Source: Tropicibacter sp. R16_0 (GTDB lineage: Bacteria; Pseudomonadota; Alphaproteobacteria; Rhodobacterales; Rhodobacteraceae). From it: DNA of 64,000 bases. Location: contig NZ_JAGHRE010000014.1 of assembly GCF_017743935.1 (NCBI RefSeq), positions 1-64,000 of the forward strand. Reading direction: 5' to 3'. The first letter of the stretch is position 1. Each line of letters begins with the position of its first letter. The translations under genes and the position numbers were made by a program. A model generated the notes under the pieces. The model saw only the letters and a list, made by a program, of their open reading frames with translations. It was not told the origin of the DNA and ran no database searches. Shown in pieces: positions 24,341-47,187 of this stretch.

Positions 24341-24507
24341 GCCGTTGTTCACCTATGCCGGAGTCTCACGCAATTGGAACGCCGGACGTGTCAGCCAACC
24401 TCGGCCTTACGCGGCTCCATGCAAGGGTAAACTAGTGAAAAACTATGACGGCCTACGGATGGCCTTAATTCGTTTTTGTCAAAAACTGTGATTTCTGATC
24501 TGTCTTA

Positions 24508-25353
24508 GGGTCAGGATTCATAACCAATAAATTACGAAAGCAGCGAGAGCGATTGCTAAGAGGAAGACCTTTGGGCAGCGGTCGTATCGGGTTGCCACCC
24601 TGCGCCAATCCTTGAGCCTACCGAACATGATCTCGATCCGGTTGCTCCGTTTGTATCGGCGCTTGTCGTACTTGACCGGTTTCTTGCGCTGTTTTCGGCC
24701 CGGTATACACGCGCATATGCCCTTGTCTTTCAACGCTTCTCTGAACCAATCGGCATCGTATCCGCGATCACCGAGCAGCCAATCGACATTTGGCAGGCTG
24801 CTCAACAATGCCCATGCGCCGATGTAATCGCTGACCTGACCGGCGGTGGCGAACAGGTTGAGCGGTCGCCCCTGGCTGTCACAGATGGCGTGCAGCTTGG
24901 TGTTCATGCCGCCCTTGGTCCGGCCAATCAGGCGACCACGCCCCCCCTTTTGACGGCCATGCTGGTCGCTGTACGGTGGGCCTTCAGGTAAGTGGCGTCG
25001 ATCATCATGGTCTTCTCTTCGCCGTGCTCGGCGGCCAGACCTGCCATCATCCGCGCGAAAATGCCTTTCTCGCTCCAGCGCTTCCAACGGCTGTAAAGTG
25101 TCTTGTGCGGGCCATATGCGTCAGGAGCATCGCGCCACCTTAACCCATTGCGGTTGACGAATATTATTCCGCTCAACACACGCTTGTCGTCAACCCTGGG
25201 CTTTCCGTGAGACTTCGGAAAGAAAGGTTGCAGACGCGCCATCTGCGCGTCGGTAAGCCAGAAAAGATCGCTCATGTCACCGCTCCGTTTTCGGAGCGTG
25301 AATCACCCAACGCGAGGGAAATCAATGCATCCAGACCCTAATGGGTCCTGACC
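24508..25353 (-). mobile_element. IS5 family (IS427-like) insertion sequence
   Basis: An 846-bp element. Ends carry short imperfect inverted repeats starting GGGTCAGGA on the left and ending TCCTGACC on the right. TTA flanks both sides (24505-24507 and 25354-25356), matching the 3-bp TNA target duplication of the IS427 group. It contains one two-frame transposase gene and lies between the thrC operon and the toxin-antitoxin pair. Confidence 0.85.
24518..25275 (-). CDS. IS5 family transposase, made by -1 frameshifting
   Basis: Two overlapping frames. The first (25275 down to 24928) encodes the N-terminal DUF4096-type domain (FWLTDAQMARLQPFFP, GLRWRDAPDAYGPHKTLYSRWKRW) and the first catalytic Asp in MMIDATYLKAH. 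The second (to 24518, -1 frame) encodes the rest of the DDE domain with GDRGYDADWFREAL and RRYKRSNRIEIMFGRLKDWRR. The frames meet at A4G7 near 24945-24955 on the minus strand, a classical -1 slippery sequence in this group. The element therefore may be intact. Confidence 0.85.
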
Positions 25354-26431: not shown

Positions 26432-27487
26432 ATGCCCAACTCAGTGACCCCGCATCACCCCCCTGCTCTGCCCTCTTTGGATGTCGAGGACCGTGCGGCG
26501 CTGGAAGACCTTTTTGTCCGCGGCACGCCGGAAAACACCCTACGGGCCTATGAGCGGGACCTGGTCTATCTGACCGCCTGGAAGAGGGCCGCGTTTGGCG
26601 CCGCGCTGGACTGGCCGGAGCAGGAGGAAGTGGCGCTGCGGTTCATCCTCGACCACAGCCGCGATCTCGCGGACGCAGCCGGTCGGGCGCGGGAAACAGC
26701 GGATCATCTGATTCAGATGGGCCTACGCAAGTCCCTCACCTGCCCGGCCCCTTCGACACTCAACCGGCGGATCGCGTCCTGGTGCGCCTTTCACCGGATG
26801 CGCAATCAGCACAACCCTTTTGACGCGCCGCTTGTGCGGCAGGCGCGGGCCAAGGCGCGCAAGGCAATGACCCGTCCCCCCGCCCCAAAGTCCGCCCATC
26901 CCATCACAAAAGATGTTCTGCTTCAGTTGCTTGAGGCCGGCGGGCCGGGGCTGCGGGGTATACGCGACCGGGCCATTCTGCTGCTGGGATGGGCCAGTGG
27001 CGGGCGGCGGCGGTCCGAGATTGTCAGCCTAGATCGCGATGACATCAAATTGGACGAGTTTGACGAGAAAGGGCTGGTTTGGATCACGCTGCTGGGCACC
27101 AAAACCACCGAGGCGGGGAAAACGCCAAAGCTGGTGCTCAAAGGTCTCGCCGCACGCGCCCTTGTCGCCTGGATTGATGCGGCGCAGATCGGGGACGGTC
27201 CGCTGTTTCGGCGCATCACGCGCACCGGAGCTCTGGGGCAAAACCGTCTGTCCGCCGCCGCTGTATCGCAGATCGTCAAACGTCTGCTGGTCGAGGCCGG
27301 TCTTGATCCATCCTATGCCTCCCCACACGGGCTGCGGTCGGGCTTTCTCACCCAGGCCGCATTGGATGGCGCGCCTTTGAGCGCTGCAATGCGCCTGTCG
27401 CTCCACCGTTCCGCCGCACAAGCGCAGAAGTATTATGACGACGTGGATGTGGCAGACAATCCGGCGACGGATTTGCTGGGGGTCTAA
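26432..27487 (+). CDS. Tyrosine recombinase / site-specific integrase
   Basis: A 351-residue recombinase. The N-terminal SAM-like core-binding domain includes TLRAYERDLVYLTAWKRAAFG. The catalytic domain has GGRRRSEIVSLDRDDI (first Arg), the PHGLRSGF box (His and second Arg), LSLHRSAAQAQKYYDDV (His and nucleophilic Tyr). XerC/D-like enzymes on plasmids resolve multimers or integrate elements. It lies between the toxin-antitoxin pair and the parAB operon, where it could maintain the replicon. Confidence 0.9.
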   Translation: MPNSVTPHHPPALPSLDVEDRAALEDLFVRGTPENTLRAYERDLVYLTAWKRAAFGAALDWPEQEEVALRFILDHSRDLADAAGRARETADHLIQMGLRKSLTCPAPSTLNRRIASWCAFHRMRNQHNPFDAPLVRQARAKARKAMTRPPAPKSAHPITKDVLLQLLEAGGPGLRGIRDRAILLLGWASGGRRRSEIVSLDRDDIKLDEFDEKGLVWITLLGTKTTEAGKTPKLVLKGLAARALVAWIDAAQIGDGPLFRRITRTGALGQNRLSAAAVSQIVKRLLVEAGLDPSYASPHGLRSGFLTQAALDGAPLSAAMRLSLHRSAAQAQKYYDDVDVADNPATDLLGV

Positions 27488-27625: not shown

Positions 27626-28720
27626 TCAACTTTCCTGCAGCGTATCGATCATCTCGGCAATTGCCTGTTCCAGCTTTCGCCGGTCAACGCGCGTGAAATC
27701 CAGGTCAAAACGCAGCTCCATCCGACCGTTTGACGCCGAACATTTTGCCACGCCGCGCGGGTGGTTGACTTGAAACGTCGTCTTGGCCTTTCGGGATTTT
27801 GGCGGCTTGCCCTCCACCGCACGAACCGCTCCCTCTTCGGCCTCGGGCGACCTCGTGAATCCTCGCAGGATCGCCACTTCTTCCGCCGCTGTTCGATCAG
27901 GTTTGGCCAACAGTGCCGCACTCAATTCGCGCTGCAACCCAGCGTCGCCATCTAGACGGCGCTTCAACTCGACCCCAACATTCCGCGGGATGTCATTGGG
28001 ATGGTTCAGCAGCTTTTCCAACCGCATCAACAGGCTTGCAAAGGCGCGGATATAGCTGCGCTTGGCGTAGCTTGCGGATTTGAACAAGATCGCAACCGCC
28101 TTGTCCACATCATCACATTCGTTGGCAGGGTCTTCGGCATAGGCGCGCGCAAGCGTTCCCATTTCGGCAAATGAGATATCCCGACGCACCAGGTTTTCAT
28201 CAACCATCCGGCGATAGTTGTCATCGGTTGAACTCTGCGCGACAATGCCTGCCGGGATATGCGCGTACCGGTCGTCACCGGTCTCTGCCAATAGCGCCCG
28301 ATAGGCCGACAATCGGCGCATGCCCTGAATCAGTTCAAACTTACCATCATCGCGTCGCTCCACGCGGATCGGATTGGACAGGCCGATCTCGCTGATCGAC
28401 AGGGTCAGTTCATCAAGTTCGGGATCAGGCCCCGCTGCACGGTCGCGGGTCAGCTTGTCCGTAACCACATCGTCCAAAGCGACCATATCGGTCACAAGGC
28501 CCTCTTTCTTCAGGCGGACCAACTCATGCGCGAGACGGTCGTTTTCGGCGCGAATGGCGTCCTCGGTCGATTGCCGATCACGCAGGGCATCCGCGTTTTC
28601 CGAGATGGCCGTTGCCATGGGCCCCCGGCGTTTTTCCAACGCGCGATCTGGCACTTTGCCCGTTGGGATGTCGTCGACCTCGGGCATGTTGATGTCAAAG
28701 ATTCTGCGCTTGCGGCTCAT
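27626..28720 (-). CDS. parB: Plasmid partition protein ParB
   Basis: A 364-residue ParB/RepB-type DNA-binding protein. The ParB N-terminal domain has LTLSISEIGLSNPIRVERRDDGKFELIQGMRRLSAYRAL (CTP-binding arginine patch GMRRLSAY) and ENLVRRDISFAEMGTLARAYA. An HTH region follows, and a long basic linker leads to the C-terminal LEQAIAEMIDTLQ dimerisation part. Its ATG overlaps the parA stop by four bases. It should load on the nearby palindromes and work with ParA in segregation. Confidence 0.92.
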   Translation of the reverse strand: MSRKRRIFDINMPEVDDIPTGKVPDRALEKRRGPMATAISENADALRDRQSTEDAIRAENDRLAHELVRLKKEGLVTDMVALDDVVTDKLTRDRAAGPDPELDELTLSISEIGLSNPIRVERRDDGKFELIQGMRRLSAYRALLAETGDDRYAHIPAGIVAQSSTDDNYRRMVDENLVRRDISFAEMGTLARAYAEDPANECDDVDKAVAILFKSASYAKRSYIRAFASLLMRLEKLLNHPNDIPRNVGVELKRRLDGDAGLQRELSAALLAKPDRTAAEEVAILRGFTRSPEAEEGAVRAVEGKPPKSRKAKTTFQVNHPRGVAKCSASNGRMELRFDLDFTRVDRRKLEQAIAEMIDTLQES

Positions 28721-30027
28721 GCCTCATCCTCCTCCAACTTGTCCCAGGCGGCTATCAACGTGTCGCGGAATTCCTGATAGGCCCCATCAAACGTGCCCCG
28801 TGCGCGGCGCCAGGTTTCGCGCGTCATGTCGCGATAATCCATCTCGTAGACCGAGCTCAGGAACCGGCCCGATTGTTCGACGGCCCGGGTCATCTCGACC
28901 GGGTGTTGGGCGACGTGATCACCGAACACCTGCTTGAATGCATCAAACATCGCCTGATGCAGCGCATTGCCGGGTTCGTACCTGGTCAACAGGAACTTGA
29001 TCTCGCAGAACGCTTTGGGAAGACCGATCTTACCCGTGGGTAAGGTTTCATCAAACCCATAGGCCAGATCCTCAAGCGCTTCGGCCAGCTGTCCGATGAA
29101 AGAGGTGGTCGAGTCATATTCCCAATACCCAGGCCCCGACGGAATATAGAGCAGGTCTGCCGCAAAAACCGCATTCATCGACTGATACCCGATGGCAGGC
29201 GGGCAATCGAACAGGATCAGGTCATAGCTATCGTCGGGGATCTGATCCAGAAAGCGCGAGACCGCTGCAAAGAACGACCACTCGGGGTTCAGGTGCCGGT
29301 ACTGGGCCGACGCAAATTCAACAAAGGCTGCATTGGCGCACGAAGGGACCGCATCAATCGTCGGCCAGGACGTGTTCTTGACAAAGTCGGACACCCGAAG
29401 ATCGCCCAAGCCCATGTTGGTGATCGATGACGGCAACTGGCGTTTGGGCAGGGCGGTGCCGCTTTCAGCGGCCGCCGGGCGGTTGTTCATCCGTTCCGTC
29501 TCGCGGATCAAATCCCGCGCCATGATGCCCCAAACGGTGTAATCCTCGGCCACGTCTGTCAGCCCCATGGAGTGGCTGAGTGTCGCCTGAGGATCGAAAT
29601 CAACAACCAACACGCGGTAGCCATCCAGCGCGGCGGCATGTGCCAGATGCAGCGCCACAGTGGACTTGCCTGCGCCGCCTTTGAAGTTCGCAACCGCAGC
29701 CCGGATCGCGCGCTTGCCAGCAGGGCGGGGCGGCATCAGGGATTTGCGGTTCGCCTTGATCCGGCGGCGCAGCTCATTGACCTCTTCCAGGCTGAACCAA
29801 CGCTGTCGGCCATCGGGCTCGACTTCGCCACCAGGCAATGTTGGGTCTGCTGCCAGCTTGCCGCGAAAGGTCGACTGGTTCATCTGAAAGATCAGCTCGG
29901 ACACCTCCCAGCTGGAGAACCGACGCAGGGTCTTCTCCATCTCGGGGCTGAAGGTCTGCTGCCGGATCCAGCCCTGCAGTTTGAGCGATTGGTTCCTGAG
30001 TGTGTTCAGGTCTTCGTGTGTATACAT
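28717..30027 (-). CDS. parA: Plasmid partition ATPase ParA
   Basis: A 436-residue ParA/RepA-type ATPase. An N-terminal HTH-like region (residues about 25-95, with RFSSWEVSELIFQMNQSTFRGKL and RWFSLEEVNELRRRIKANRK) precedes the deviant Walker A KGGAGKST (116-123), VLVVDFDPQATLS (Walker A'), and LILFDCPPAIGYQS (Walker B). The N-terminal domain marks a type Ia ParA that represses its own promoter. It is divergent from the initiator gene across a 513-bp origin-like interval. One parS-like site lies inside the gene. Confidence 0.93.
   Translation of the reverse strand: MYTHEDLNTLRNQSLKLQGWIRQQTFSPEMEKTLRRFSSWEVSELIFQMNQSTFRGKLAADPTLPGGEVEPDGRQRWFSLEEVNELRRRIKANRKSLMPPRPAGKRAIRAAVANFKGGAGKSTVALHLAHAAALDGYRVLVVDFDPQATLSHSMGLTDVAEDYTVWGIMARDLIRETERMNNRPAAAESGTALPKRQLPSSITNMGLGDLRVSDFVKNTSWPTIDAVPSCANAAFVEFASAQYRHLNPEWSFFAAVSRFLDQIPDDSYDLILFDCPPAIGYQSMNAVFAADLLYIPSGPGYWEYDSTTSFIGQLAEALEDLAYGFDETLPTGKIGLPKAFCEIKFLLTRYEPGNALHQAMFDAFKQVFGDHVAQHPVEMTRAVEQSGRFLSSVYEMDYRDMTRETWRRARGTFDGAYQEFRDTLIAAWDKLEEDEA
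29029..29044. promoter_or_regulatory. parS-like palindrome 2 (inside parA)
   Basis: CTTACCC-GT-GGGTAAG within the parA coding sequence, preceded by GAT, matching the core at 27596-27619 and 30126-30141. Its conservation inside a gene makes a chance match less likely. Confidence 0.7.
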
Positions 30028-30540: not shown

Positions 30541-31236
30541 ATGCAAGTCAGGAAACCAGTCGGCAACAACGCGTCGGCGTTGAAATATGATATCTTATCC
30601 GCCCTGGGCGTCCACGCCTTGGCCGGAGACAAGCATCGGCAGAAGTTGGTGCTGCGTCTGATGACATTGATCACCACACGCTACAACTGGCGCAACAACG
30701 AGCTTTCGATGGGTCGCGAAGAGATCGCACGCCTTTGGTCAGTCAACGAACGCACAGTCAAACGCGATGTCGGGAAACTGAAATCCCTGGGATGGCTGTC
30801 GGTCAAGCGGGCAGGGGTCCGGGGCCGGGTCACGGTATATGAATTGGACCTTAAACAGATCCTGGGAGACACCCGCAAGGCATGGATGTTGATCGGCCCG
30901 GATATGCAAGCCCGCATTGAAGACCAACCCGAACCCGCGGATTGTGACAACGTGGTGCCAATCCAGGCGGCATCATCGACGTCAGCACCAGAAGGGGAGG
31001 GGACTTGGGCCAAGGTTCAAAAAACACTGCATGCCCGGGACCCCGAACTGTGGTCTAGCTGGTTTCAACATCTGAAAGAGGACAGCAGGGTAGGGGACGA
31101 GGTAGTCCTGAGCGCTCCAAGCCGCTTCATGGCAGACTACATTGCGTCGCGATGGTCCGAACGTGTTTCATCTGTTTACATGCGTCTTGACTCATCTGTC
31201 CGGACGGTCCGGATCATTCAGGCAGAGAACCCTTGA
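30541..31236 (+). CDS. DnaA-like plasmid replication initiator
   Basis: A 231-residue protein. The N-terminal part (about 1-105) is a winged-helix-like DNA-binding region with MGREEIARLWSVNERTVKRDVGKLKSLGWLSVKRAGVRGR. The C-terminal part (about 155-228) matches the DnaA N-terminal domain (WAKVQKTLHARDPELWSSWFQHL, VVLSAPSRFMADYIASRWSERVSSVY). There is no AAA+ ATPase domain, so it is not chromosomal DnaA. This is the pattern of the DnaA-like plasmid replicases described in Rhodobacterales, divergent from parAB as here. The DnaA_N part probably recruits the helicase. Confidence 0.85.
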   Translation: MQVRKPVGNNASALKYDILSALGVHALAGDKHRQKLVLRLMTLITTRYNWRNNELSMGREEIARLWSVNERTVKRDVGKLKSLGWLSVKRAGVRGRVTVYELDLKQILGDTRKAWMLIGPDMQARIEDQPEPADCDNVVPIQAASSTSAPEGEGTWAKVQKTLHARDPELWSSWFQHLKEDSRVGDEVVLSAPSRFMADYIASRWSERVSSVYMRLDSSVRTVRIIQAENP

Positions 31237-33753: not shown

Positions 33754-36003
33754 ATGCTGGATAGTACACACCCAACAGGCACCACCGCGGACGTGATTTC
33801 GGTCCTGCGCCTGACACCGCTCAACGCCTCCACACGCATGATCACAATCAACTCGGTGCGCTCGCTTCGAGAGGTCCTGTCAGACGGAGCCGATATCTCG
33901 GCCGATACGTTCTTTGCTGCGGCGGAAACCGCTACGCCGGAACTGCGCGCGCAGATTGGCGATCGTCACAGTCAAATCCTCAGCGATGTGAAGCGCGCCA
34001 AACGGGCCTGGGCAGACCCGTTCCGCCGGGATCTGGTTCTGCGGCTGCGGGGGCGCCTGCCGACCTTGCAGGATGCCATCGACGCCGTGGATGCAGGCGG
34101 TTCTCCCAAACAGGCCAAGCGCACGGTTCAGTCTCTCCAGAAACTGGCGGCGTCCCAAGCAACTTTACCTGCCAATATTGTGGCGACGGCAATTGTCGTG
34201 GAGCCGCTGCTACGCAGACTGACGCCGGAAGATCTCGACGTCCACACGCCCAAATCCCTCAGCAACAAGCTGGCGCAAATCCGCGCTGCGGTGAGGCTTG
34301 TGGATCCCAATGCGATCTCGGGCAGGGCTGCGGATATCAAGACCCTGCCACAAAGCTGGCGGGATCTCCTGGACATGCTTACCGGCAGGCTCTCGGACTC
34401 AGACACAGCAGTATGCGCCGCCTTTCGTCGGCTGGCGGTGCGGGCAGACCGGGACGGTCTGTTGCCCGGAGATGTGCATGACGCGTTTTTGAGGAATTTC
34501 GTAGAGCATGAGCTGGCGACCAAATCTGATAGCCACAAAGACAAACTGCGCCGCGCGGGACGTATCTGGAACGAAGTGATTGCCGGGGCAGGTCTGCCCG
34601 CCGCACAGTTTGAAAATGCCGTTCGGCAAGACCGGTTGCCGGATGTGTCCTGGCAATCCGTTCCGGAACCGATCCGTGCCCGTGTTGACATGCTGATGCA
34701 TCGGATGGTGGCCCCGCAAGGCGATGAGGACTGGTCCTCCTTCATCGAAGAGGATGATGACGACCTCGGTCTGGGAGACCTGGTTGACGATACCGATGCT
34801 TCAGGAGCAGCCATCCCGCGTGAGCTGGGCACGCAGGGTAATCTGCGTGACGCAGTCAAAAGGGTATGGCATGCGGCCGAGACCAGTTCAAAGGTACCCC
34901 GGAAACCCGAGCGGCTCGAAGATCTGTTTCGCCAGGATAGTCTCGTAGCAACCGTGTCGGCCATTCGTGAAAAGCGGCGGGTGAAGGTTGAAGCCCGGGG
35001 AGAAACCTGGGATGCGCACAAGAAAGGGCGCTATGAATGCTCTTTGGTGCAGGCCCTCTATTCCGTAGGCAAATCCTGTGAGCTGCCGGAGGAAGTTCTC
35101 GAACCGGTTCGGAAACTAACACTCAAGCTGGACCCAAGCGTGGTCGGCACCAAGCTGAAACCCGATGGCACTTTGGCTTATGTGTATGAAGATCGGAAGA
35201 TCGGCAAACACCATGAAGGTATGCTGCGCCAGTTCAACGAGGACACGGCCCTGAAACGGTGGTTCCAGGCTCCAGGAACCCTGTGGAGGGAAGCCGAGAA
35301 ATGGGTGAAGCAAGGCAAGCATAGGCCGACATTGGCCCAGGCTTCTCTGGCGCGCTCGGCGCTGATTGCCCAATTGGCCCAACGCGTGACGCCGATGCGC
35401 CGGACCAATTTTGCGCGGTTGCGGGCCTTTGGCGATGAAGCTCATTTCAACGTGCCGATCGGGGCAGGGGAGGGGACTCTGATCCTGCCCGGCGCCGAGC
35501 TGAAAAACCTGCGCTCTATCCATGTGACGATTGACCAAGAAACGGTCCGAATGCTGAAACGCTTCATCGAGATTTATCGCCCGCTGTTCGTCGAGCGCGC
35601 GAAAGCGGATCCGGAAAACCCGCATCTCTTTCCTGGGATCGGAAGCGAGCGTAAGGAGCGAGGCAAGACTGGAGGCTATACCAAAGGCTTCGGTTACATG
35701 ACGAAGACCAAGCTCAGCCAGCGGTTCCGGCAGCATCTGTGGAAACACTGCATGCTGCGCATGGATATGCAGGTGATGCGCCATATCGCCGGCAAAGTCA
35801 TTCTGGACATGGATCCGAGTGCGATGGGGCTGGTGCAAGAAGTTCTGGGTCACAAGAGGATCGAAACCACGCAGTCCTATTACGCCCAGGTCAGCAAGAT
35901 CGTTGCGCAGAAGAACTACCTGAAGCTGCTCGATCAGTATTCCCGCCGCGTCATGTCGGACATCCGTTTCAACATCGACCCCGAAAATGAGAAGGAGGGC
36001 TGA
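33754..36003 (+). CDS. Large tyrosine-recombinase-like protein
   Basis: A 749-residue protein whose C-terminal third carries tyrosine recombinase features: a first Arg in VTPMRRTNFARLRAF, a second Arg in MQVMRHIAGK (the usual HxxR histidine is missing), then LGHKRIETTQSYYAQV with the late His and nucleophilic Tyr. The N-terminal 480 residues are not recognised and include an acidic stretch EEDDDDLGLGDLVDDTD (about 330-346). It overlaps in organisation with the next recombinase-like gene, 3 bp apart. Size and layout recall TnpB of Tn554-type or RIT-type multi-recombinase elements. Confidence 0.75.
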   Translation: MLDSTHPTGTTADVISVLRLTPLNASTRMITINSVRSLREVLSDGADISADTFFAAAETATPELRAQIGDRHSQILSDVKRAKRAWADPFRRDLVLRLRGRLPTLQDAIDAVDAGGSPKQAKRTVQSLQKLAASQATLPANIVATAIVVEPLLRRLTPEDLDVHTPKSLSNKLAQIRAAVRLVDPNAISGRAADIKTLPQSWRDLLDMLTGRLSDSDTAVCAAFRRLAVRADRDGLLPGDVHDAFLRNFVEHELATKSDSHKDKLRRAGRIWNEVIAGAGLPAAQFENAVRQDRLPDVSWQSVPEPIRARVDMLMHRMVAPQGDEDWSSFIEEDDDDLGLGDLVDDTDASGAAIPRELGTQGNLRDAVKRVWHAAETSSKVPRKPERLEDLFRQDSLVATVSAIREKRRVKVEARGETWDAHKKGRYECSLVQALYSVGKSCELPEEVLEPVRKLTLKLDPSVVGTKLKPDGTLAYVYEDRKIGKHHEGMLRQFNEDTALKRWFQAPGTLWREAEKWVKQGKHRPTLAQASLARSALIAQLAQRVTPMRRTNFARLRAFGDEAHFNVPIGAGEGTLILPGAELKNLRSIHVTIDQETVRMLKRFIEIYRPLFVERAKADPENPHLFPGIGSERKERGKTGGYTKGFGYMTKTKLSQRFRQHLWKHCMLRMDMQVMRHIAGKVILDMDPSAMGLVQEVLGHKRIETTQSYYAQVSKIVAQKNYLKLLDQYSRRVMSDIRFNIDPENEKEG

Positions 36004-36006
36004 ACG

Positions 36007-37476
36007 ATGCCAAAACACCGTCTATCCTTAGCACCATCAGATTGGCCCGAAGACATTCGGGCCCGGTTCGACACAGCCTTCGCGGAGTCTTCCCAGCACC
36101 AACGCCCCCGCCTCACACAAGGACTGGGGCGCTGGCTGCTGGAAGCCCGGCAGGATGATCTGCCCCCGGAGTTGATTACACCGGCGCTGCTGGAGCGCCG
36201 CCTGGGGCATCTGCGCCCGGAAATGCTGGCCGCCACCCGCCAGGCCCTGCAAGCGGTCTTTCCCGAAGCCAATGTCTTCGAGCGAGACGCCCGTGTGAAG
36301 GTCGAGAGCAAGCGCGCGGCATTGCAACGCGAGATTTCCCGCAATTGGCATCGCTTGCCACCCGCATGGCAGGAGGCCGCGAAACCCAAGCTGTTTTTCT
36401 GCCCCGAGGGTTTGAGTGATGGGCTCCTGGTCGAAGCCTGGACACCAGATACGGTGCAATCACGGTTGCAGACCGCTTGGGCATTCTTCGACTATTGCCG
36501 GGAACAAGGTTTGAAGGGCGATATGACGCCAGTTAACGTCAGGGCTTACCTCAACCAGCGTCAGGAGCTTTTCCGTGCCGGCAAAAAGTCGATCGCGACC
36601 ATCCGGGGAGAACTCCAGCGGCTGAAACTGCTTGGCGTTGCCCTGTTTCCCGACCGCAATTGGAGCTGGTTCGATCCGGTTTTGCGCATTCTGAAGAAAA
36701 AGGCTGCCTTGCAGCCCTCCCGCAATGACGCGCGCATTGTCGATCTCGCCGAGTTGAGATTGGCGGCACTCAGCTGTTCCGAGGTGGCGCTGCGGCGTCG
36801 CGAGGCTGCAAATGGCTACAGAAAACGCGCAAGCGCCAACAAGCTGGCGCGCACAGGGCTGGCGATTTCATTGCTGGTGAATTCACCCATTCGCCGGAAA
36901 TCCCTTGCCACGCTGGATCTGAAGGAGAATTTCGATGCAGGCTTTACCCGGCTTTACCTTTCGGCACACGAGACCAAGGACGGGCAGCGGGATGAACGGC
37001 TGCTGTCACCGGAGGTACAGAAACAGCTGCGTGACTACATCGAACACCATCGTGGCGTGGTCGCGCCGACACGGGAAACCGCGCTGTTTGTCGGCAGCCG
37101 CGGCAAACCCGTGGCGCCAGGCTATCTGAGTCAAACGGTCGGCGATCAATGCGAGAAGCTCTTTGGCAGGCGCGTGACACCACAGGTCATTCGCAACATT
37201 ATCGCTGGTTTCATTGTCTCGCAGGCGCCGGAACAGGCCAGCCTGGCCAGTATCGTGCTGAACCACGCGTCGACCGCAACCACTGAAACGTATCGTGCGA
37301 ATGGCAAGCAGGTCCAGGCCGCAAAGAAACTACGTGCGGCGAATGACCATGGTCGGGCGGAACACGGTGTGGAAACGACAGGCTCAGAGAAGCCCGGGCA
37401 GGGGAGGAGGGGGCGCAGTCGCCCGTCCAGACCGGTGCGGGAGCGCCCACCAAGACGTCGGCGCAGGGCGGCCTAA
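36007..37476 (+). CDS. Second tyrosine-recombinase-like protein
   Basis: A 489-residue protein. SPIRRKSLATLDL supplies the first Arg, LYLSAHETKDGQRDERLL the likely Lys strand, VTPQVIRNIIAGFI the second Arg and LNHASTATTETYRA the late His and Tyr. The C-terminal 45 residues are very Arg/Pro-rich (GRRGRSRPSRPVRERPPRRRRRAA, shown in part) and probably disordered and DNA-binding. The gene begins 3 bp after the previous recombinase-like gene, so both are cotranscribed and may act as a heteromeric recombinase. Confidence 0.75.
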   Translation: MPKHRLSLAPSDWPEDIRARFDTAFAESSQHQRPRLTQGLGRWLLEARQDDLPPELITPALLERRLGHLRPEMLAATRQALQAVFPEANVFERDARVKVESKRAALQREISRNWHRLPPAWQEAAKPKLFFCPEGLSDGLLVEAWTPDTVQSRLQTAWAFFDYCREQGLKGDMTPVNVRAYLNQRQELFRAGKKSIATIRGELQRLKLLGVALFPDRNWSWFDPVLRILKKKAALQPSRNDARIVDLAELRLAALSCSEVALRRREAANGYRKRASANKLARTGLAISLLVNSPIRRKSLATLDLKENFDAGFTRLYLSAHETKDGQRDERLLSPEVQKQLRDYIEHHRGVVAPTRETALFVGSRGKPVAPGYLSQTVGDQCEKLFGRRVTPQVIRNIIAGFIVSQAPEQASLASIVLNHASTATTETYRANGKQVQAAKKLRAANDHGRAEHGVETTGSEKPGQGRRGRSRPSRPVRERPPRRRRRAA

Positions 37477-37653
37477 CCGCAGATGAGAGCGGTGCTCAGA
37501 GGCCAAACAACCAAAAACTGGTGCGCGGTGGTGGTTACAGGTACCGGGGCTCTTGTCGTGAAGCCCGGTCCCTGAAACCAACCACGCAGCACTGAACATC
37601 CACAATACAGAAAGGAGCCATCTTGAAGCCGAGGCATCGCCGCGTGACGCCCC

Positions 37654-37680
37654 CGGTCAGCTTCCTCACAAAGCTGACCG
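37654..37680. repeat. 10-bp stem-loop in the leader of a small gene
   Basis: CGGTCAGCTT (37654-37663) pairs perfectly with AAGCTGACCG (37671-37680) around a 7-nt loop, about 50 bp before the start of the small protein at 37729. AAAGGAG at 37613-37619 before an in-frame TTG hints at a short leader peptide upstream, which is not proven. Confidence 0.45.
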
Positions 37681-37728
37681 TCTTGAAGAAAGCCGCAATC
37701 CCGCGTGCTCAAAAACCGGGAGACCACA

Positions 37729-38115
37729 ATGTCAAATCTCGACCCCCTCGAAGACCTCATCTACGATACGCTGCGCCAAGGGCGCATATTCGCGGAAGCC
37801 TGGGAAGAAGCCGCGCTCGACACATCCGGCAGCCTGCGCAGGCTCTGGCCCGCTACGATTACGCGGCTGAAAGAGGGCGACTGCCTGGAAGACCAGGATA
37901 CGGATGTGCTCAAATGCATGGCAGAAATCATTCTCGAAGCTCGTGCCAACATCAAATCCAAGCTCGGCGAGCAGGGGCGCAATGACCGCGACTATCTCTG
38001 CGCCCGCAAGATCGAGCTCGACCTGCTTATGGTGTATTTTGGGTCATTCTGGAAACGCAGGCAGATGGTGTTCGATCGTCAGAAGACCGAGGAGCTCTAT
38101 GGCAGGCAGTTCTGA
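37729..38115 (+). CDS. Small protein of the recombinase cluster, unknown function
   Basis: A 128-residue acidic, mainly helical-looking protein (DPLEDLIYDTLRQGRIFAEAWEEAALD at the N terminus, NDRDYLCARKIELDLLMVYFG near 85-105). GGGAG precedes the ATG at 37729. It follows the two recombinase-like genes on the same strand after a 250-bp leader. Tn554-type elements also end with a small accessory protein (TnpC), but no sequence similarity can be claimed. Confidence 0.55.
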   Translation: MSNLDPLEDLIYDTLRQGRIFAEAWEEAALDTSGSLRRLWPATITRLKEGDCLEDQDTDVLKCMAEIILEARANIKSKLGEQGRNDRDYLCARKIELDLLMVYFGSFWKRRQMVFDRQKTEELYGRQF

Positions 38116-39742: not shown

Positions 39743-39923
39743 GATAACGATGTCATCAGAGCAACGGCTGAGACCGGCGTGATCTAAGCAAGGTAGGCCG
39801 GCAAAGCGCCTCAAGTAAGCAAAGGCGCGGCCCTCTGCCCTATCAAGTGTTGGCCCGGAATAGTCTGGTAGGAAAAAGCACGACCGACTGCGCGAGGTTT
39901 AGATTTGGAGTTGGCACATATGA

Positions 39924-41309
39924 TCAAAGCGGCGGCAGCTTCAAGCGGTCCCTGTATACTCCGATGCGTTTGCGTGCACGTTCCACGACGTCCCCGTAGA
40001 AAAGAAGTTCCGAGTAAAGCTGGCCAAGTGTAGCCTGGCTTTTCGGCTCCTTCACATCGTCAGTGCTGAAGAAGCCGTTTTCGCCGGGCAAACGATTGTA
40101 GCCACGCAGGCGGATTGTATTGATGGTATCCCCTATTAGGTATCCGTAGAACTTCTTCAGCCTTCCGTTGGACTTCGCGGCCAAGAGTGTAGCGTATTCC
40201 ATCAGGTCATTGTCGTGCTCGTCGAGACTGACCCCGGGCGCCTTGAACTCAACGATCACCACGGAGCCTTCTTCGTGAAACAGCGCTATGTCCGGACGGC
40301 AGCCCCCGTTCTCGTCACCTATCCGAGTTAGCAACTCGCCAACGGCCTCATCGACGTCGGCTTCGAAGAGGTTCTGGCCGTTGTCCCATTTGATCTGGTT
40401 CAGCGGCATATCAGAGGCGATGTAGTTGTAGTAGTGATACTCCTCGCTTAGTAGCCAAACATCATGGTCTGAGACCTCCTCACTGTCCTTTCGCATCGGG
40501 AAGAAGATACTGTGGATCAGAGCCTCGTTCTTGCGGCGCTGCCCGTCAGGAAGTTCGGTCTGGACGTTGAGCCCTTCATTCACGGCTAGGTCCAGTACGT
40601 CGATCAATGCTGACCTGCGAACGACCAGCTGCGACAGGTTGGCCATGTCTATCGTCTTGAGCGAGGAGGCGTATTCCCACGAAAGGTCGTCGATCTTGCG
40701 CCGGAAGTCATCACTGTCCGGAGCAAGCTCTTTGATCGCTTCCTTCATAGCTGAAAGGCTAGACGTCTCGTTGACCACCTGCTCTTGAAGGTTCGTCAAG
40801 ACACGCTTCGCGACCTCGTTCGGGGTGTCTCCGAATTTCACACGCGTATTCGAGTACGAGAGCATCTCTTCAGAAACGCCGAAGTCCTGAGCCACGTCAT
40901 TTACGATCGTATCCCTGGACCAATCAGGTGGAGTTATGAGCTCCTGCACCTTGTCGTCGAGAACCGAGAATATGTCCTCAAAGGTGACCTGCATCCCTCC
41001 GAAAAGATCGGCTGAGCCGTCGTCCAATGGGATCTTGTCGAACCCATCGCGTTGTTCGTTTACACCATCATCCAACAAGGGGCCCTCGACCAAGACGATG
41101 TGGTAGTGACCGTCAATCGCGTTGTTTTCGAGCGTCTTGGTTTTGAGGTAACGACCGGTGATGAGTTCAGCGATCGACGCTTTGGCGCACAAACCTATGA
41201 TGTTGCGCGGCAAAGGGTACTGTGTTTCGTCCAGCTTGTAGTGCGTTATGGTGAAGTCGGCCGATACCTTGTCCTCACCTTCAACGTGTTCGACGGTAAT
41301 TGGCGTCAC
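39924..41309 (-). CDS. C-terminal part of GHKL-ATPase protein with PD-(D/E)XK nuclease domain
   Basis: A 461-codon frame. Residues 1-125 (VSADFTITHYKLDETQYPLPRNIIGLCAKAS) look like a transducer/middle domain of a GHKL ATPase, and GCRPDIALFHEEGSVVIVEFKAPG near 337-359 is a PD-(D/E)XK nuclease core with D340, E354 and K356. The frame is the same as that of the upstream ATPase gene: after the ATPase TAG at 41346-41348, twelve sense codons lead straight into this GTG without any other stop. No ribosome site precedes the GTG, so this is probably the distal half of one protein of about 727 codons. Confidence 0.75.
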   Translation of the reverse strand: MTPITVEHVEGEDKVSADFTITHYKLDETQYPLPRNIIGLCAKASIAELITGRYLKTKTLENNAIDGHYHIVLVEGPLLDDGVNEQRDGFDKIPLDDGSADLFGGMQVTFEDIFSVLDDKVQELITPPDWSRDTIVNDVAQDFGVSEEMLSYSNTRVKFGDTPNEVAKRVLTNLQEQVVNETSSLSAMKEAIKELAPDSDDFRRKIDDLSWEYASSLKTIDMANLSQLVVRRSALIDVLDLAVNEGLNVQTELPDGQRRKNEALIHSIFFPMRKDSEEVSDHDVWLLSEEYHYYNYIASDMPLNQIKWDNGQNLFEADVDEAVGELLTRIGDENGGCRPDIALFHEEGSVVIVEFKAPGVSLDEHDNDLMEYATLLAAKSNGRLKKFYGYLIGDTINTIRLRGYNRLPGENGFFSTDDVKEPKSQATLGQLYSELLFYGDVVERARKRIGVYRDRLKLPPL

Positions 41310-41345
41310 GGAAGTGTGCTCAGGGATGTCCGCAGGCGTCAGGGT

Positions 41346-42107
41346 CTATTCAGACTTGGTGCCTCCAAGATCACTGACGAACTTGATCTGGAAGTCGCCG
41401 AGGTCATCCTTGAGACTGACGAACCTCTGCAGTAGGTTGAAGAGAACGTGCTGTCGGATCGCCTCGGCAGTGAACATCCGGTGCACGCTGGACACCGACA
41501 GGATAGTCTCGCGAAGCTTTGGCATCAAGTGAGACAGTTGTATATGGGTCCCGACTTCGCCAGTGTCCCGATCCTCTACCGTGAAGTCGGTCTCTTCGAT
41601 CGTCTTTCGGTCGCGCAGAAAAGGCAGTGAGATGTGCTTGAACCCGTCTCCCTCTCTGCAGATTGATGACAGTGAGACCGCCCTGAAGTGGTGGAAGAAC
41701 TGGACGCGACCGGTTCCCTTGCACTTCCCGATGCCAGGGATGTTGAGGTCGTCCTTGTAGGAGGTGTCCTTAGTCAGGAAGGCCTTGCGCTGCTCTGGCC
41801 CAAGACCGCAGCCGTTGTCCTCGCAGGTGATCTCGAGGTCGTACTCCTCACCCAGCAAGTCGGCTTTCGTAGCTTTCACCTGGAGGGTTACTTGCAGAGC
41901 GACCGCGTTGGCCTCATCCCTCTTTCGGATAAGGAACGCATCGATCGAGTTAGCCAGTAGCTCGTCCACGACCACCGATGGGTTCTTACTGATGCGCGTG
42001 TTCTTCAGGCTACCTCGGATATCGAGCGTCACTGTCGGTCCCCCACCATCTAACGATTTGTTTTTCCCACTTATCCTAGCGCGCGCTTTCCATGTCAATT
42101 TTCGCAT
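41346..42107 (-). CDS. GHKL (Hsp90/MutL/MORC-type) ATPase domain protein, ends at in-frame TAG
   Basis: A 253-residue ATPase domain with all GHKL motifs: N-box VVDELLANSIDAF (E49, N53), DNGCGLG at 97-103, and lid/G2 GIGKCKGTGRVQFFHHF at 125-141. It ends at a TAG directly followed, in frame, by the transducer and nuclease part. Bacterial GHKL ATPases joined to nucleases (MORC-like) occur in restriction and phage-defence contexts. The intact protein would be a GHKL ATPase-nuclease fusion; the TAG may be a mutation or a regulated stop. Confidence 0.85.
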   Translation of the reverse strand: MRKLTWKARARISGKNKSLDGGGPTVTLDIRGSLKNTRISKNPSVVVDELLANSIDAFLIRKRDEANAVALQVTLQVKATKADLLGEEYDLEITCEDNGCGLGPEQRKAFLTKDTSYKDDLNIPGIGKCKGTGRVQFFHHFRAVSLSSICREGDGFKHISLPFLRDRKTIEETDFTVEDRDTGEVGTHIQLSHLMPKLRETILSVSSVHRMFTAEAIRQHVLFNLLQRFVSLKDDLGDFQIKFVSDLGGTKSE

Positions 42108-42634
42108 GCTTGAGTCTTTGGGGCTCCGTGAAGAGGTACCCCGAGTTCATCGCACTGCCGGAACGGTATTTTTCCGCTGTACTGTGTCTATGCTGTTCGT
42201 GGACAATCGACCTGATTGCTGCAAGTCCATAGGCTCGTACCGACAACGACACAGACGTGTTGCAGGTACGAGAGGCCTTCCAGCATTTTGAGATGCCTAA
42301 TGGCTGCTTACGCAGGCCTGTCGCGGCGCGCCACCGACCAAGCAAAGATCGGGTGAGAAGTTAATTGCGTTCCGACTACCAGTGCAGCGGGCCCAAGTCG
42401 AACGGCAGCTTTTTTAAGTATTCTTGTTGATGATGCACTTGCAGCTAGTGACGGCTTTCCGCCCAGTTCGCAGTTTCCAACAACACTATTTCAGTCAATT
42501 TGCACGTTTCCTCTTTTCAAATCAGGAGACGTTTCGTACGAAGATCAGAGCACACCGGTGGGTTGTGTGGACTACCTATAGTCATGAAATATTGAAGAAA
42601 AATACTTCGCCTTCTGGGATCCCCCTGGGCGAGA
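42108..42634. other. Divergent intergenic region, no gene seen
   Basis: About 530 bp between the GHKL gene and the divergent helicase-like gene. Short open frames here lack ribosome sites. A small AT-rich stretch near 42400-42430 and 42590-42610 could hold promoters. No repeat was recognised. Confidence 0.4.
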
Positions 42635-44932
42635 ATGAATAAATGCGCGCTGATGTTTGACAACAAGGACGACAACACTCAAAGCTCAGACGAAATCAAA
42701 TGGCTCGATCGGGATGACGCGCTCATTCAGCTGAAATCGCACATCCAGCTGTTCCTGAGAGACGCAGAAAAGTGGCACCAGACAGACCCTAAAGAGGCGC
42801 CTCCGGTGCTTGGAATGAAAGTCTCTGCTGGTTTGGGGAAAACCCGCTCGACGTTGGAAAGCATCGCCGAGCAGGGTGCGGAGATCCTGAAACATGGTCA
42901 CATCTTCATCTATGTGCCGACGCTTGATTTGGCCGACCAGGCCGCGCAGGATTTCAAGGAGTTCAATTCCGGCCTGCCGCACATGGTGCTGCGGGGCCGC
43001 TCGGCGATCAATCCGTCAACCGGCGCGCCGATGTGTTCCCGGGCAGATCTCGCGGATGCCATTGTCGGCAATGTCAGCTCTGTTACCCAGGCCTTGTGCC
43101 GGAAAGCGGTTTCGGAAACCGAAACCGTTTACGCAAGATGTGCCACGGGGTGCGCGTATCTCGATCAGACCAAAACAGAAGACCACCGCATTGTCTTCCT
43201 TGCGCATGCCTACCTCAGGCTGAGGGTGCCGCTTGAAGGTGAGGTGGCACTGCGCATCATCGACGAAAAGTTCTGGGGGCCTCTTGTTCATACGGAGACG
43301 CTCTACAGGGATCATTGGCTGACGCCGCAGTACCGGGCCCCGTCAAAAGACGAGGAGATCGAAACAGACCAGGCGCACTTTGAGCTCAGTCGCAAGGTCC
43401 GCCACGCGGTCTCTCTCGCACTCGAAACCGGTGAGCCAATCCATGGCAATCTGCGCGACCTCGAAGTGAAGAAAAGGAAGCTGCAAAAGCTGGCCAACTA
43501 TGAAGCCAAACAGGTCCCAGGTCTCTATCTCCGCCCTGACTGGAAGGATGACACGCTCCGGAAGAAACGCGACAGTTTCGATGCTGGTCTGGCAGATCGC
43601 GCCAGGGTCCAGGCGAAGATTTTCAGGCTGCTTGCTGCCACCGCGGATCAGGACACCACAGAGCGTCTGAGCCTTGCCAGGTTCTCACAAGACCATCCGG
43701 ACCGGGTCACGTTCAAAGCTCATTTTCTGGATGATTTGCCTCAGACATCACCGTGGTTGTTGTTGGATGCTGATCTGGACAGCACGATTACCCGACAGTT
43801 CTTTCCCAATGCCGAAATCGTAACACTGCACGCCAGGCCAAAGGCAGATATCATTCAGGTGCGGAACCGAACCCTTTCGGACACCTGGTTGACGTATCAC
43901 GAGAAGGCTGAGCATCATCAGGATCTGGTGCTGAATATCATCAAGCGCGAAGTCGCCCTCGCGGCCTCTTCCGACAATGGTCGGCTTCTGGTTGTTGGAA
44001 CCAGAAAGGTCCTGAAGGCGCTCTTCGAGCGGGCAGGGGACAAAAATGGTGTCGCGTCACAGGACGATCCGTCGATCCCATCGCAGCTCCATGGGGCGGA
44101 CGTGCGTTGGTATGGTGCCAAAATGCTTGGCATCAATGACTACAAAGAGCATGCAACGGTGATTCTGGTGGGGCGAATGCAGCTCAACGTCAATGCGTTG
44201 GAAGATCAACTGAAAGCGATGTTCGGGGACAGTGGCGAACCGCTGGTACTTACTCAGGACAACAGGCTTGTTGAGGAGGGGGCGGGTTCGACTGCCTCCT
44301 CAGAAAGCAGAGAACGCGGATCAACACGTGGACCCCAGGTCCATCCGGATGAACGCGGCACTGCACTTCTCCGCCAAAACCGTGAGGCGGCGTCCGAGCA
44401 GGCCATTGCCCGCCTGCGGCTGGTGTTTCCCAATCGAGCAAAAAGGGTTGTCATTCTGAGCAACGTGCCGCTGCCAAACCTGCCCGTCGATACCTACGTG
44501 GAACTCGAAGCCTTCGCAGAAGGCCGACATGGACATCGGAGAACATCAAACTACCGCAAATTGGAATCCGCTGTTACTTCCAACGATGGCGCGCCAAGCG
44601 TCAAAGGTCTCCGTACCGGCAAAACGGGCCTTTTCCAGGACGCACGGCACTTTTTCACGAAGCCAAGTGCTACCAAAGAAATAACTGACGAGTTGTCCAA
44701 TGGCGGCGTTACAGAAGCTCTGGCCCAAATCGCTTCGGATAGAAACTGGAACGCCACCGAAGTTACTCTGGCCCCAAGGCGAGGTGGCAAACCGTTCAGC
44801 GCCGTCGTGTTCTCCTCTCCGGATCAGGCCCTCGATATCGCCAGTGAGCTCTGGCCAGGTTTCAAGGTTGCCTTGGGACGGGCGCTGACTTCCACCATCT
44901 CGGATCAGGAAGACGTTATCGAGGACGCATAG
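42635..44932 (+). CDS. Helicase-like P-loop protein with four cysteines between Walker motifs
   Basis: A 765-residue protein. Walker A is SAGLGKT (64-70), a strand FIYVPTLDLADQAA follows (motif Ia region), and a Walker B-like RIIDEKF is at 207-213 after FLAHAYL, which resembles the NHALL segment of XPD/DinG helicases. Cysteines C134, C155, C169 and C173 fall between the two motifs, as in the iron-sulfur domain of that group. The C-terminal half has few landmarks. Start could be 42635 or the ATG at 42653. It is divergent from the GHKL-nuclease gene, so a joint nucleic-acid defence role is possible but unproven. Confidence 0.6.
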   Translation: MNKCALMFDNKDDNTQSSDEIKWLDRDDALIQLKSHIQLFLRDAEKWHQTDPKEAPPVLGMKVSAGLGKTRSTLESIAEQGAEILKHGHIFIYVPTLDLADQAAQDFKEFNSGLPHMVLRGRSAINPSTGAPMCSRADLADAIVGNVSSVTQALCRKAVSETETVYARCATGCAYLDQTKTEDHRIVFLAHAYLRLRVPLEGEVALRIIDEKFWGPLVHTETLYRDHWLTPQYRAPSKDEEIETDQAHFELSRKVRHAVSLALETGEPIHGNLRDLEVKKRKLQKLANYEAKQVPGLYLRPDWKDDTLRKKRDSFDAGLADRARVQAKIFRLLAATADQDTTERLSLARFSQDHPDRVTFKAHFLDDLPQTSPWLLLDADLDSTITRQFFPNAEIVTLHARPKADIIQVRNRTLSDTWLTYHEKAEHHQDLVLNIIKREVALAASSDNGRLLVVGTRKVLKALFERAGDKNGVASQDDPSIPSQLHGADVRWYGAKMLGINDYKEHATVILVGRMQLNVNALEDQLKAMFGDSGEPLVLTQDNRLVEEGAGSTASSESRERGSTRGPQVHPDERGTALLRQNREAASEQAIARLRLVFPNRAKRVVILSNVPLPNLPVDTYVELEAFAEGRHGHRRTSNYRKLESAVTSNDGAPSVKGLRTGKTGLFQDARHFFTKPSATKEITDELSNGGVTEALAQIASDRNWNATEVTLAPRRGGKPFSAVVFSSPDQALDIASELWPGFKVALGRALTSTISDQEDVIEDA

Positions 44933-45055: not shown

Positions 45056-45484
45056 TCACCAATTCCCATCATAGGATGCGAAGATGACCTGGTTCCCGAC
45101 GATGAACGGGCTGCCCGGAAACGGGTTCTTAGGCGCGAGTCCTGCGCGTTCCATCTGGTATTGGTCGTTCACCATTTCGTAGGCGCAGAGCAAGGCGAGG
45201 TTTTTGCTTGGCAGTGGAAGGGCAGAAGCTGTACCGACGACATCCGGCCAACCCTCAGGGACATTCTTCAGCAAAAGCTCGGCATACCAGCCCGCCTTGT
45301 CCTCGCGGACAATCAGCGACCGGATGTTGCTGATGCAGATGTATGGGGACAGGTGTGTCCCCTGAAACCTCGCGACCGGCTGAAAGTCCGGATCGAAGGG
45401 GTGTTGCTCAGCCGCTTCGAGAGCCTTTTTCAGGATCTTCTTGCCGCGCTTGATGTCAGCTTTGGTGATATGTGCAATAGCCAT
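45056..45484 (-). CDS. Orphan plasmid protein, paralogue of the gene at 46774
   Basis: A 142-residue protein. The middle segment SNIRSLIVREDKAGWYAELLLKNVPEGWPDVVG aligns with RNLKSIIIRQNKEGYWTGDLLLKRVPHGVPDVIG of the 46774-47187 gene, so the two are paralogues; both begin with a KADIKRGKKIL / RKEVADGKKLL helix. The beta-rich core and conserved Trp/Pro suggest a compact domain. A 27-codon gene lies upstream on the same strand. Function unknown. Confidence 0.65.
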   Translation of the reverse strand: MAIAHITKADIKRGKKILKKALEAAEQHPFDPDFQPVARFQGTHLSPYICISNIRSLIVREDKAGWYAELLLKNVPEGWPDVVGTASALPLPSKNLALLCAYEMVNDQYQMERAGLAPKNPFPGSPFIVGNQVIFASYDGNW

Positions 45485-46773: not shown

Positions 46774-47187
46774 TCAACCGTCGGCAGCATGCGGTTCGGA
46801 GGGGGCTGAATGCCGGGCGGGAGCCTTTCGTCGATCCTGAAGCCAGATGCCTTTGACCGTCAGACCAAGCATGGAAAGCACGTCCTGGCGGGTCCTGTAG
46901 GGCCAGAAGGGTGCATGTTCAGGAACACCAATCACATCCGGCACCCCATGCGGTACGCGTTTCAAAAGCAGGTCGCCCGTCCAATAGCCCTCCTTGTTCT
47001 GGCGAATGATGATGGATTTGAGGTTGCGCACGCGCAGATGGGCAAACATTGCATTGGCGTCTGCCGAGTACGGTTTTAGCTCGAAGTGGTCCTCTAAAGA
47101 TTGCTCGCGCGGAAGCTTTTCCAGAATTCTGGCAAGGAGCTTTTTGCCGTCGGCGACTTCCTTGCGGGTGAAACTGACATATTCCAT
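46774..47187 (-). CDS. Orphan plasmid protein, paralogue of the gene at 45056
   Basis: A 137-residue protein sharing the FTRKEVADGKKLLARIL N-terminal helix pattern and the RNLKSIIIRQNKEGYW / DLLLKRVPHGVPDVIG core with the 45056-45484 protein. The C-terminal tail is polar and basic. It is divergent from the gene at 47639, across an interval with an 18-bp hairpin. Function unknown; two copies on one plasmid suggest a family with separate partners. Confidence 0.65.
   Translation of the reverse strand: MEYVSFTRKEVADGKKLLARILEKLPREQSLEDHFELKPYSADANAMFAHLRVRNLKSIIIRQNKEGYWTGDLLLKRVPHGVPDVIGVPEHAPFWPYRTRQDVLSMLGLTVKGIWLQDRRKAPARHSAPSEPHAADG

What the first reader, a model, noticed from the sequence alone, without database searches (positions are those of the whole stretch)
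39924..42107. GHKL ATPase and PD-(D/E)XK nuclease split by a single in-frame TAG
The ATPase ORF ends at TAG (41346-41348) and the downstream transducer/nuclease ORF is in the same frame: twelve sense codons (ACC CTG ACG CCT GCG GAC ATC CCT GAG CAC ACT TCC) join them with no other stop and no ribosome site. Together they would make a protein of about 727 codons with an N-terminal GHKL ATPase, a middle domain, and a C-terminal nuclease core D340-E354-K356 (numbered in the second ORF). MORC-like GHKL-nuclease proteins are known from bacterial defence contexts. Either the amber is a mutation, a readthrough signal, or it separates two polypeptides.
Basis: partly seen in the sequence, partly recalled or inferred. 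Interest (0 to 1): 0.8.

Follow-up and report, generated by a model that had tools for sequence, protein, structure and literature searches.

The report
Defence nuclease gene with premature stop
A bacterial gene that in related bacteria makes one ATP-driven DNA-cutting protein, probably an anti-phage defence enzyme, is cut short here by a single stop codon, most likely a recent inactivating mutation or a sequencing error rather than a new biological device.

Summary
On the minus strand one frame runs 42107-39924 with a single internal stop, TAG at 41348-41346. Relatives encode it as one protein of about 700 residues: 46 of 58 public-genome loci have the whole frame intact; 53 of 58 cover the stop column and none has a stop there. 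The real start is probably GTG 42032, making the stop codon 229 of 703. In a relative's model it falls in a beta-strand after the ATPase domain. Downstream codons are still strongly constrained (6 amino-acid against 56 silent window-only changes). Best reading: a very recent nonsense mutation, or an assembly error, in a known kind of gene: GHKL ATPase plus PD-(D/E)XK nuclease, the paraMORC3 architecture. A Vibrio protein of this architecture, VcSduA, is published to restrict phage (PMC12137116). The Shedu signature domain is not matched, so I do not file it as Shedu. Readthrough or a working two-piece enzyme is unlikely but not excluded. Ordinary, low interest.

The parts
39924..42032 (-). Whole gene frame, 703 codons counting the final stop, probable GTG start at 42032, final stop 39926-39924, one internal TAG
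41346..41348 (-). Premature TAG, codon 229 of 703; relatives carry various sense residues at this non-conserved column
41523..41981 (-). GHKL ATPase domain (about residues 18-170), with E24, N28, DNGCG (72-76) and GIGKCKGTGR (100-109)
   Evidence: Pfam HATPase_c 5.3e-05 and HATPase_c_3 0.0043, both below the curated cut-off; conserved columns; PDB fold matches of a relative's model to TRAP1, GyrB, topo VI-B, MORC2/3
41082..41390 (-). Probable transducer (S5-like) domain, about residues 215-317; the stop lies in strand 225-231 of the relative's model (block pLDDT 92)
   Evidence: AlphaFold2 model of intact relative L069; assignment as transducer inferred from long fold alignments to two-domain GHKL structures
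40503..40982 (-). Helical middle region, about residues 351-510
   Evidence: model
39927..40535 (-). PD-(D/E)XK nuclease domain, D581 at 40292-40290, E595 at 40250-40248, K597 at 40244-40242
   Evidence: weak Pfam HSDR_N 0.0023, below cut-off; D581, E595, K597 invariant in 35 of 35 aligned relatives; weak PDB fold matches headed by restriction enzyme Kpn2I and EndoMS, none at E <= 0.001
42033..42120 (-). Upstream stretch alignable with the close relatives, holding the probable ribosome-binding site

Best explanation
This is a single-gene, laterally mobile GHKL ATPase-nuclease, most likely an anti-phage or anti-plasmid defence enzyme, whose copy here has been cut short by a recent nonsense mutation. 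In intact relatives ATP binding and hydrolysis by a GHKL dimer would open and close a clamp around DNA and so license the C-terminal PD-(D/E)XK nuclease to cut foreign DNA. In this copy translation should stop after 228 residues, giving the GHKL domain without most of the following domain and without any nuclease, so no defence. Shown: one frame, one stop, intact single-ORF relatives, catalytic residues retained on both sides, no sign of relaxed selection after the stop. Inferred: that the stop is a real mutation, loss of function, the defence role, and the clamp mechanism (by analogy with VcSduA, PMC12137116, and with MutL/topoisomerases as argued in PMC2292703).
For: 46 of 58 genome-contig loci carry one uninterrupted frame over the whole query. 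So do all 5 plasmid records fetched out of 19 with a match (four at 51-95% identity to the C-terminal piece, one at 25%) and 3 of 4 viral-contig loci, one of these being the same contig as L058. The stop column is variable in relatives and lies within a folded domain of the model. All 108 columns invariant in 35 relatives are unchanged in the window. dN/dS downstream of the stop is 0.042-0.048 in 4 window pairs, against 0.064-0.088 in 6 pairs among intact relatives. Even with zero background constraint failure, a neutral share of 8% of the window's own branch is rejected (P 0.006) while 5% is not (P 0.16). The first GTG after the stop has no ribosome site. One copy in the genome; no CUA-anticodon tRNA-like pattern there. 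Nearby genes of intact relatives include strong PADLOC matches: HerA (E 0), PtuA (4.6e-161), GajB (6.9e-156), AbiLi (1.7e-88).
Against: No reads, so a base-calling or assembly error cannot be told from a mutation. The observed 6 downstream amino-acid changes are fewer than the 12.5 expected from the relatives' constraint even with no neutral time (P 0.034); an error or a still-working arrangement would explain this as well as a recent stop. The neighbour scan had no matched control set and shows 25 of 321 families only. Six neighbours of the window gene scanned with PADLOC gave nothing better than E 0.015. Nothing here tests defence.
Confidence: 0.72

Rival explanations
1. The TAG is a sequencing or assembly error and the gene is intact in the living strain.
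For: No other lesion in the frame; no relaxation of selection after it; all 108 invariant columns kept.
Against: The assembly scores well (100% complete, 0.34% contamination, 37 contigs). Other members of the family are broken too (insertion in L027, frame break in L053, early ends in L056, L061, L063, L064), so decay is not rare here.
Confidence: 0.2
2. The TAG is read through (suppressor tRNA or a programmed signal) and full-length protein is made at some level.
For: Downstream frame is constrained and the stop column tolerates many residues.
Against: No CUA-anticodon tRNA-like pattern in the genome (the pattern is strict and could miss an odd tRNA); no Rfam match at gathering score in the window; none of the 53 relatives that cover the column has a stop there.
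Confidence: 0.04
3. Two polypeptides: an ATPase chain and a nuclease chain started anew after the stop, working together.
For: Both halves keep their conserved residues; GHKL ATPases with a separate nuclease exist (MutL/MutH, as told in PMC2292703). TTG 41078 and 41075 have a duplex of -6.4 kcal/mol upstream.
Against: The break is inside a folded domain of the model; the first GTG after the stop has no Shine-Dalgarno (-1.9 kcal/mol, background mean -2.9); the two TTG lie 90 and 91 codons after the stop, and 24% of random positions score -5 or lower; at the place of GTG 41309 L022 has a codon that is no start; no split relative found.
Confidence: 0.03

Closest known systems
paraMORC3 (Iyer, Abhiman and Aravind 2008, PMC2292703)
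   Same: N-terminal GHKL, a following alpha+beta domain, C-terminal nuclease with D and ExK; proteobacterial; no conserved neighbours, as that paper says of a subset
   Different: This copy has a premature stop; descent from the published paraMORC3 sequences was not tested by a tree
VcSduA, GHKL Shedu, type I-D (PMC12137116)
   Same: Same order of domains; a conserved glutamate of the ATPase and lysine of the nuclease, the kinds of residue whose change abolished phage protection there, are present here (E24, K597; equivalence inferred from motifs, not aligned)
   Different: Window-family proteins do not match the Shedu signature SduA_C (PF14082) by which VcSduA is classed; no direct sequence comparison with VcSduA was made
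A second Rhodobacterales GHKL-nuclease family (A4: L007, L008, L010-L012)
   Same: Profile-profile match over nearly the whole length, E 1.2e-27
   Different: 20-24% identical to the L014 query
GHKL + SduA_C protein of the same order (L089)
   Same: Same architecture, RPD...EFK core
   Different: SduA_C match itself below cut-off; profile match to the window family weak and confined to the nuclease end (probability 6.9%, E 0.0052, 123 columns)

Membership tests
paraMORC3 | N-terminal GHKL ATPase with its motifs | tested here: met
   E24, N28, DNGxG, G100, G106, G108 invariant and G102 nearly so in 35 relatives; Pfam HATPase_c in 8 of 10 rows of A1 at E <= 0.1, below the curated cut-off in the two tables seen; fold matches
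paraMORC3 | S5-like transducer domain after the GHKL | tested here: inconclusive
   alpha+beta region at 215-317 in the model; long PDB alignments (373-586 columns among the top 17) to two-domain GHKL structures, but rmsd 8-20 A and aligned ranges not shown
paraMORC3 | C-terminal RE-fold domain with E-D-ExK | tested here: inconclusive
   D581, E595, K597 invariant, but Pfam and fold matches are weak
paraMORC3 | Common descent with the published members | not tested
   published sequences were not fetched
Shedu (SduA) | SduA_C / DUF4263 domain (PF14082) | tested here: not met
   no match at E <= 0.1 in the window pieces, in the rows of A1 or in 7 distant relatives; no match at E <= 0.001 in the window's genome, while 9 of 292 genomes of the order match; no SduA structure among the 50 fold matches shown for the nuclease part
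Restriction-modification system | Linked methylase or helicase conserved with the gene | tested here: not met
   among 62 loci with the gene or a piece of it, no other ORF family is shared by more than 8; the window's helicase-like ORF is shared by none of the others (flanks mostly up to 8 kb, BLASTP 1e-8)
Anti-phage defence gene | Phage protection | not testable with these tools
   published for VcSduA (PMC12137116, section 12 read), not for this family as far as searches show

The most novel reading that the evidence does not exclude
The two halves are still made and still work: either a conditionally read-through amber or a two-chain ATPase-nuclease in which the stop tunes a costly defence enzyme. 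The strong constraint on the codons after the stop would then reflect present function rather than recency of the mutation.
Probability: 0.05. Interest if true: 0.6.

Novelty: new member of a known kind. Interest (0 to 1): 0.2.

Why it matters
It settles that two adjacent ORFs, which automated annotation could call an ATPase and a nuclease, are one interrupted gene, and it adds a mainly alphaproteobacterial, often plasmid-borne branch to the GHKL-nuclease (paraMORC3-type) proteins that PADLOC and Pfam barely recognise. Up to 12 of 58 genome loci are not intact as sequenced, one through an assembly gap and one a 32-residue match only, which fits a costly, easily lost defence gene. The amber itself teaches little unless shown to be read.

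Tried and rejected
Rejected: a conserved partner gene (the divergent helicase-like ORF 42635-44932 is shared by none of the other 61 loci). Rejected: filing as Shedu (PF14082 not matched). Led nowhere: sequence search of the PDB (4 matches at E <= 1, all triosephosphate isomerase); C-terminal fold search (restriction-enzyme-like hits lead, none at E <= 0.001); phage collection (one record, 22% identity, E 8e-5). Relatives-, order-, class- and phylum-wide sampling: 1 of 61, 12 of 341, 7 of 385 and 12 of 398 genomes with any match, the window's own genome counted each time. Full-length close members there, own genome apart: 0, 4, 0 and 3, none with a stop inside; searches scored at most two candidates a genome in the rows shown, so they may miss some. 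An unrelated-looking 22-25% identical group was not pursued beyond. PMC8011034 (passages only) links paraMORC-like proteins to a histidine-kinase-like family; not relevant here.

Full report
What is there. The gene is on the minus strand. The upstream limit is probably wrong by 25 codons: in L014 and L003 the frame is closed three codons before the GTG that corresponds to 42032, relatives start with (M/V)TLDIRGSLKNT there, and a ribosome-binding-like stretch precedes it. The gene is then 703 codons with its final stop and the TAG is codon 229.

Relatives. tblastn against plasmid records finds 19 records with a match. Five were fetched. Tabrizicola piscis (95% identity for the C-terminal piece), Rhizobium etli, Sphingomonas morindae and Sinorhizobium sp. 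each have it annotated as a single hypothetical protein of about 700 residues; the fifth, Pseudoalteromonas piscicida (25%), has an open frame too. A scan of genome contigs returned 58 loci. In 46 of 58 one uninterrupted frame covers the query from residue 1-3 to 697 or further. The other 12: L023 has a run of N; L027 (Phaeobacter) is interrupted by an insertion whose ORFs look like an IS3-type transposase (my reading); L053 changes frame near residue 33; L056, L061, L063 and L064 end early, at residues 601, 298, 436 and 377; L072, L073, L074 and L076 are N-terminal remnants, three of them with stops; L075 matches over 32 residues only. Seven of these 12 still cover codon 229, so 53 of 58 loci cover it and none has a stop there. 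In viral contigs 4 of 60 candidate stretches are relatives: L079 and L080 are intact, L078 has the contig length and coordinates of L058, and L077 is cut by its contig end. The window genome holds the gene once.

Mobility. Four copies in Celeribacter, Ruegeria, Sinisalibacter and Salipiger are 99.1-99.9% identical in DNA although the genera differ, which points to recent transfer. The window copy is about 90% identical to these and to T. piscis over a block (39921-42120) little larger than the gene; of 12 loci compared only L022 shares more (39836-42462, 86%). On this contig a ParA-type gene (28720-30027), a ParB-like gene (27629-28720, below cut-off) and a gene with a DnaA_N domain (30541-31233) suggest a plasmid; this was not tested further.

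Is the stop old? Counting codons where the window alone differs from four relatives (L014, L019, L022, L069) that agree: upstream of the stop 6 amino-acid and 17 silent changes, downstream 6 and 56. dN/dS downstream is 0.042-0.048 for the four window pairs and 0.064-0.088 for the six other pairs; upstream 0.098-0.129 and 0.096-0.183. Had the downstream part been neutral along the whole window branch, about 190 amino-acid changes would be expected. With no changes at all allowed before the stop arose, a neutral share of 8% is rejected (P 0.006) and 5% is not (P 0.16). With the relatives' own constraint the 6 changes are already fewer than the 12.5 expected without any neutral time (P 0.034). 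Fisher tests are not significant (window against relatives downstream p 0.16; window up against down p 0.078), so I claim no relaxation rather than tightening. All 108 columns invariant among 35 of the 46 intact relatives are kept. The stop is therefore very recent, an error, or without effect.

Where the stop falls. The AlphaFold2 model of an intact relative (L069; mean pLDDT 79, pTM 0.61) puts residue 229 in strand 225-231, in a block of pLDDT 92, of the alpha+beta region after the GHKL domain. The junction is thus inside a folded part, probably the transducer. GTG 41309 has no ribosome site (-1.9 kcal/mol, background mean -2.9), and in L022 that codon is no start. A tRNA-like pattern with a CUA anticodon has no match in the genome, and no tRNA lies in the window.

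What it is. The N-terminal part matches Pfam HATPase_c and HATPase_c_3, the C-terminal part HSDR_N, all below curated cut-offs. Fold search of the whole model gives Hsp90-type, GyrB/ParE, topoisomerase and MORC ATPases (35 matches at E <= 0.001). The nuclease part alone gives only weak matches, headed by Kpn2I and EndoMS. This is the architecture that Iyer et al. (PMC2292703; parts 1-3 of 4 of the text read) named paraMORC3 and noted as stand-alone in some proteobacteria. PMC12137116 (passages and section 12 read) reports that a V. cholerae protein of this architecture, VcSduA, protects against phages, needs its ATPase and its nuclease, and is classed with Shedu type I-D through DUF4263. Window-family proteins do not match that domain (PF14082), and a protein of the same order that has GHKL and a sub-threshold SduA_C match (L089) aligns with them only weakly. 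They align end to end with another GHKL-nuclease family in the order. I therefore say it works like VcSduA, and leave Shedu membership unmet.

Defence context. Among 83 proteins near intact relatives, PADLOC matches include HerA, PtuA, GajB and AbiLi at very low E-values; the tool lists only 25 of 321 families, so I cannot say how many of the 83 match, and there was no control set. No neighbour is conserved across the family, so the gene seems to act alone. Six neighbours in the window gave no PADLOC match better than E 0.015.

Conclusion. One gene, one recent nonsense change or error, in a known kind of protein.

Noticed in passing
window 33754-38115 (+): Two adjacent tyrosine recombinase-like genes (749 and 489 aa) followed by a 136-aa ORF, an arrangement that recalls Tn554-type transposons (recalled, not tested); a third integrase lies at 26432-27487.
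   Followed up: partly
window 45056-45484 (-) and 46774-47187 (-): Two small paralogues, 33% identical over 95 columns; the first was scanned and has no Pfam, PADLOC, NCBIfam or PHROGs match.
   Followed up: partly
window 42635-44932 (+): Divergent 765-aa helicase-like protein with weak ResIII/DEAD and DinG/Csf4 matches, shared by none of the other 61 loci compared.
   Followed up: partly
L027 8001-11058: The Phaeobacter sp. J2-8 copy is broken by an IS3-like insertion with loss of about 87 codons.
   Followed up: yes
L019, L020, L021, L069: Gene copies 99.1-99.9% identical in DNA in four genera, suggesting very recent transfer.
   Followed up: partly
L084: A Shedu SduA match in a relative's genome (G091) is also reported with one internal TAG.
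   Followed up: no
window 24506-24588 and 25226-25276: Short DNA matches to L022 (83 bases, 83%) and to L074 (51 bases, 86%), far from the gene in the window but next to it in those loci.
   Followed up: no
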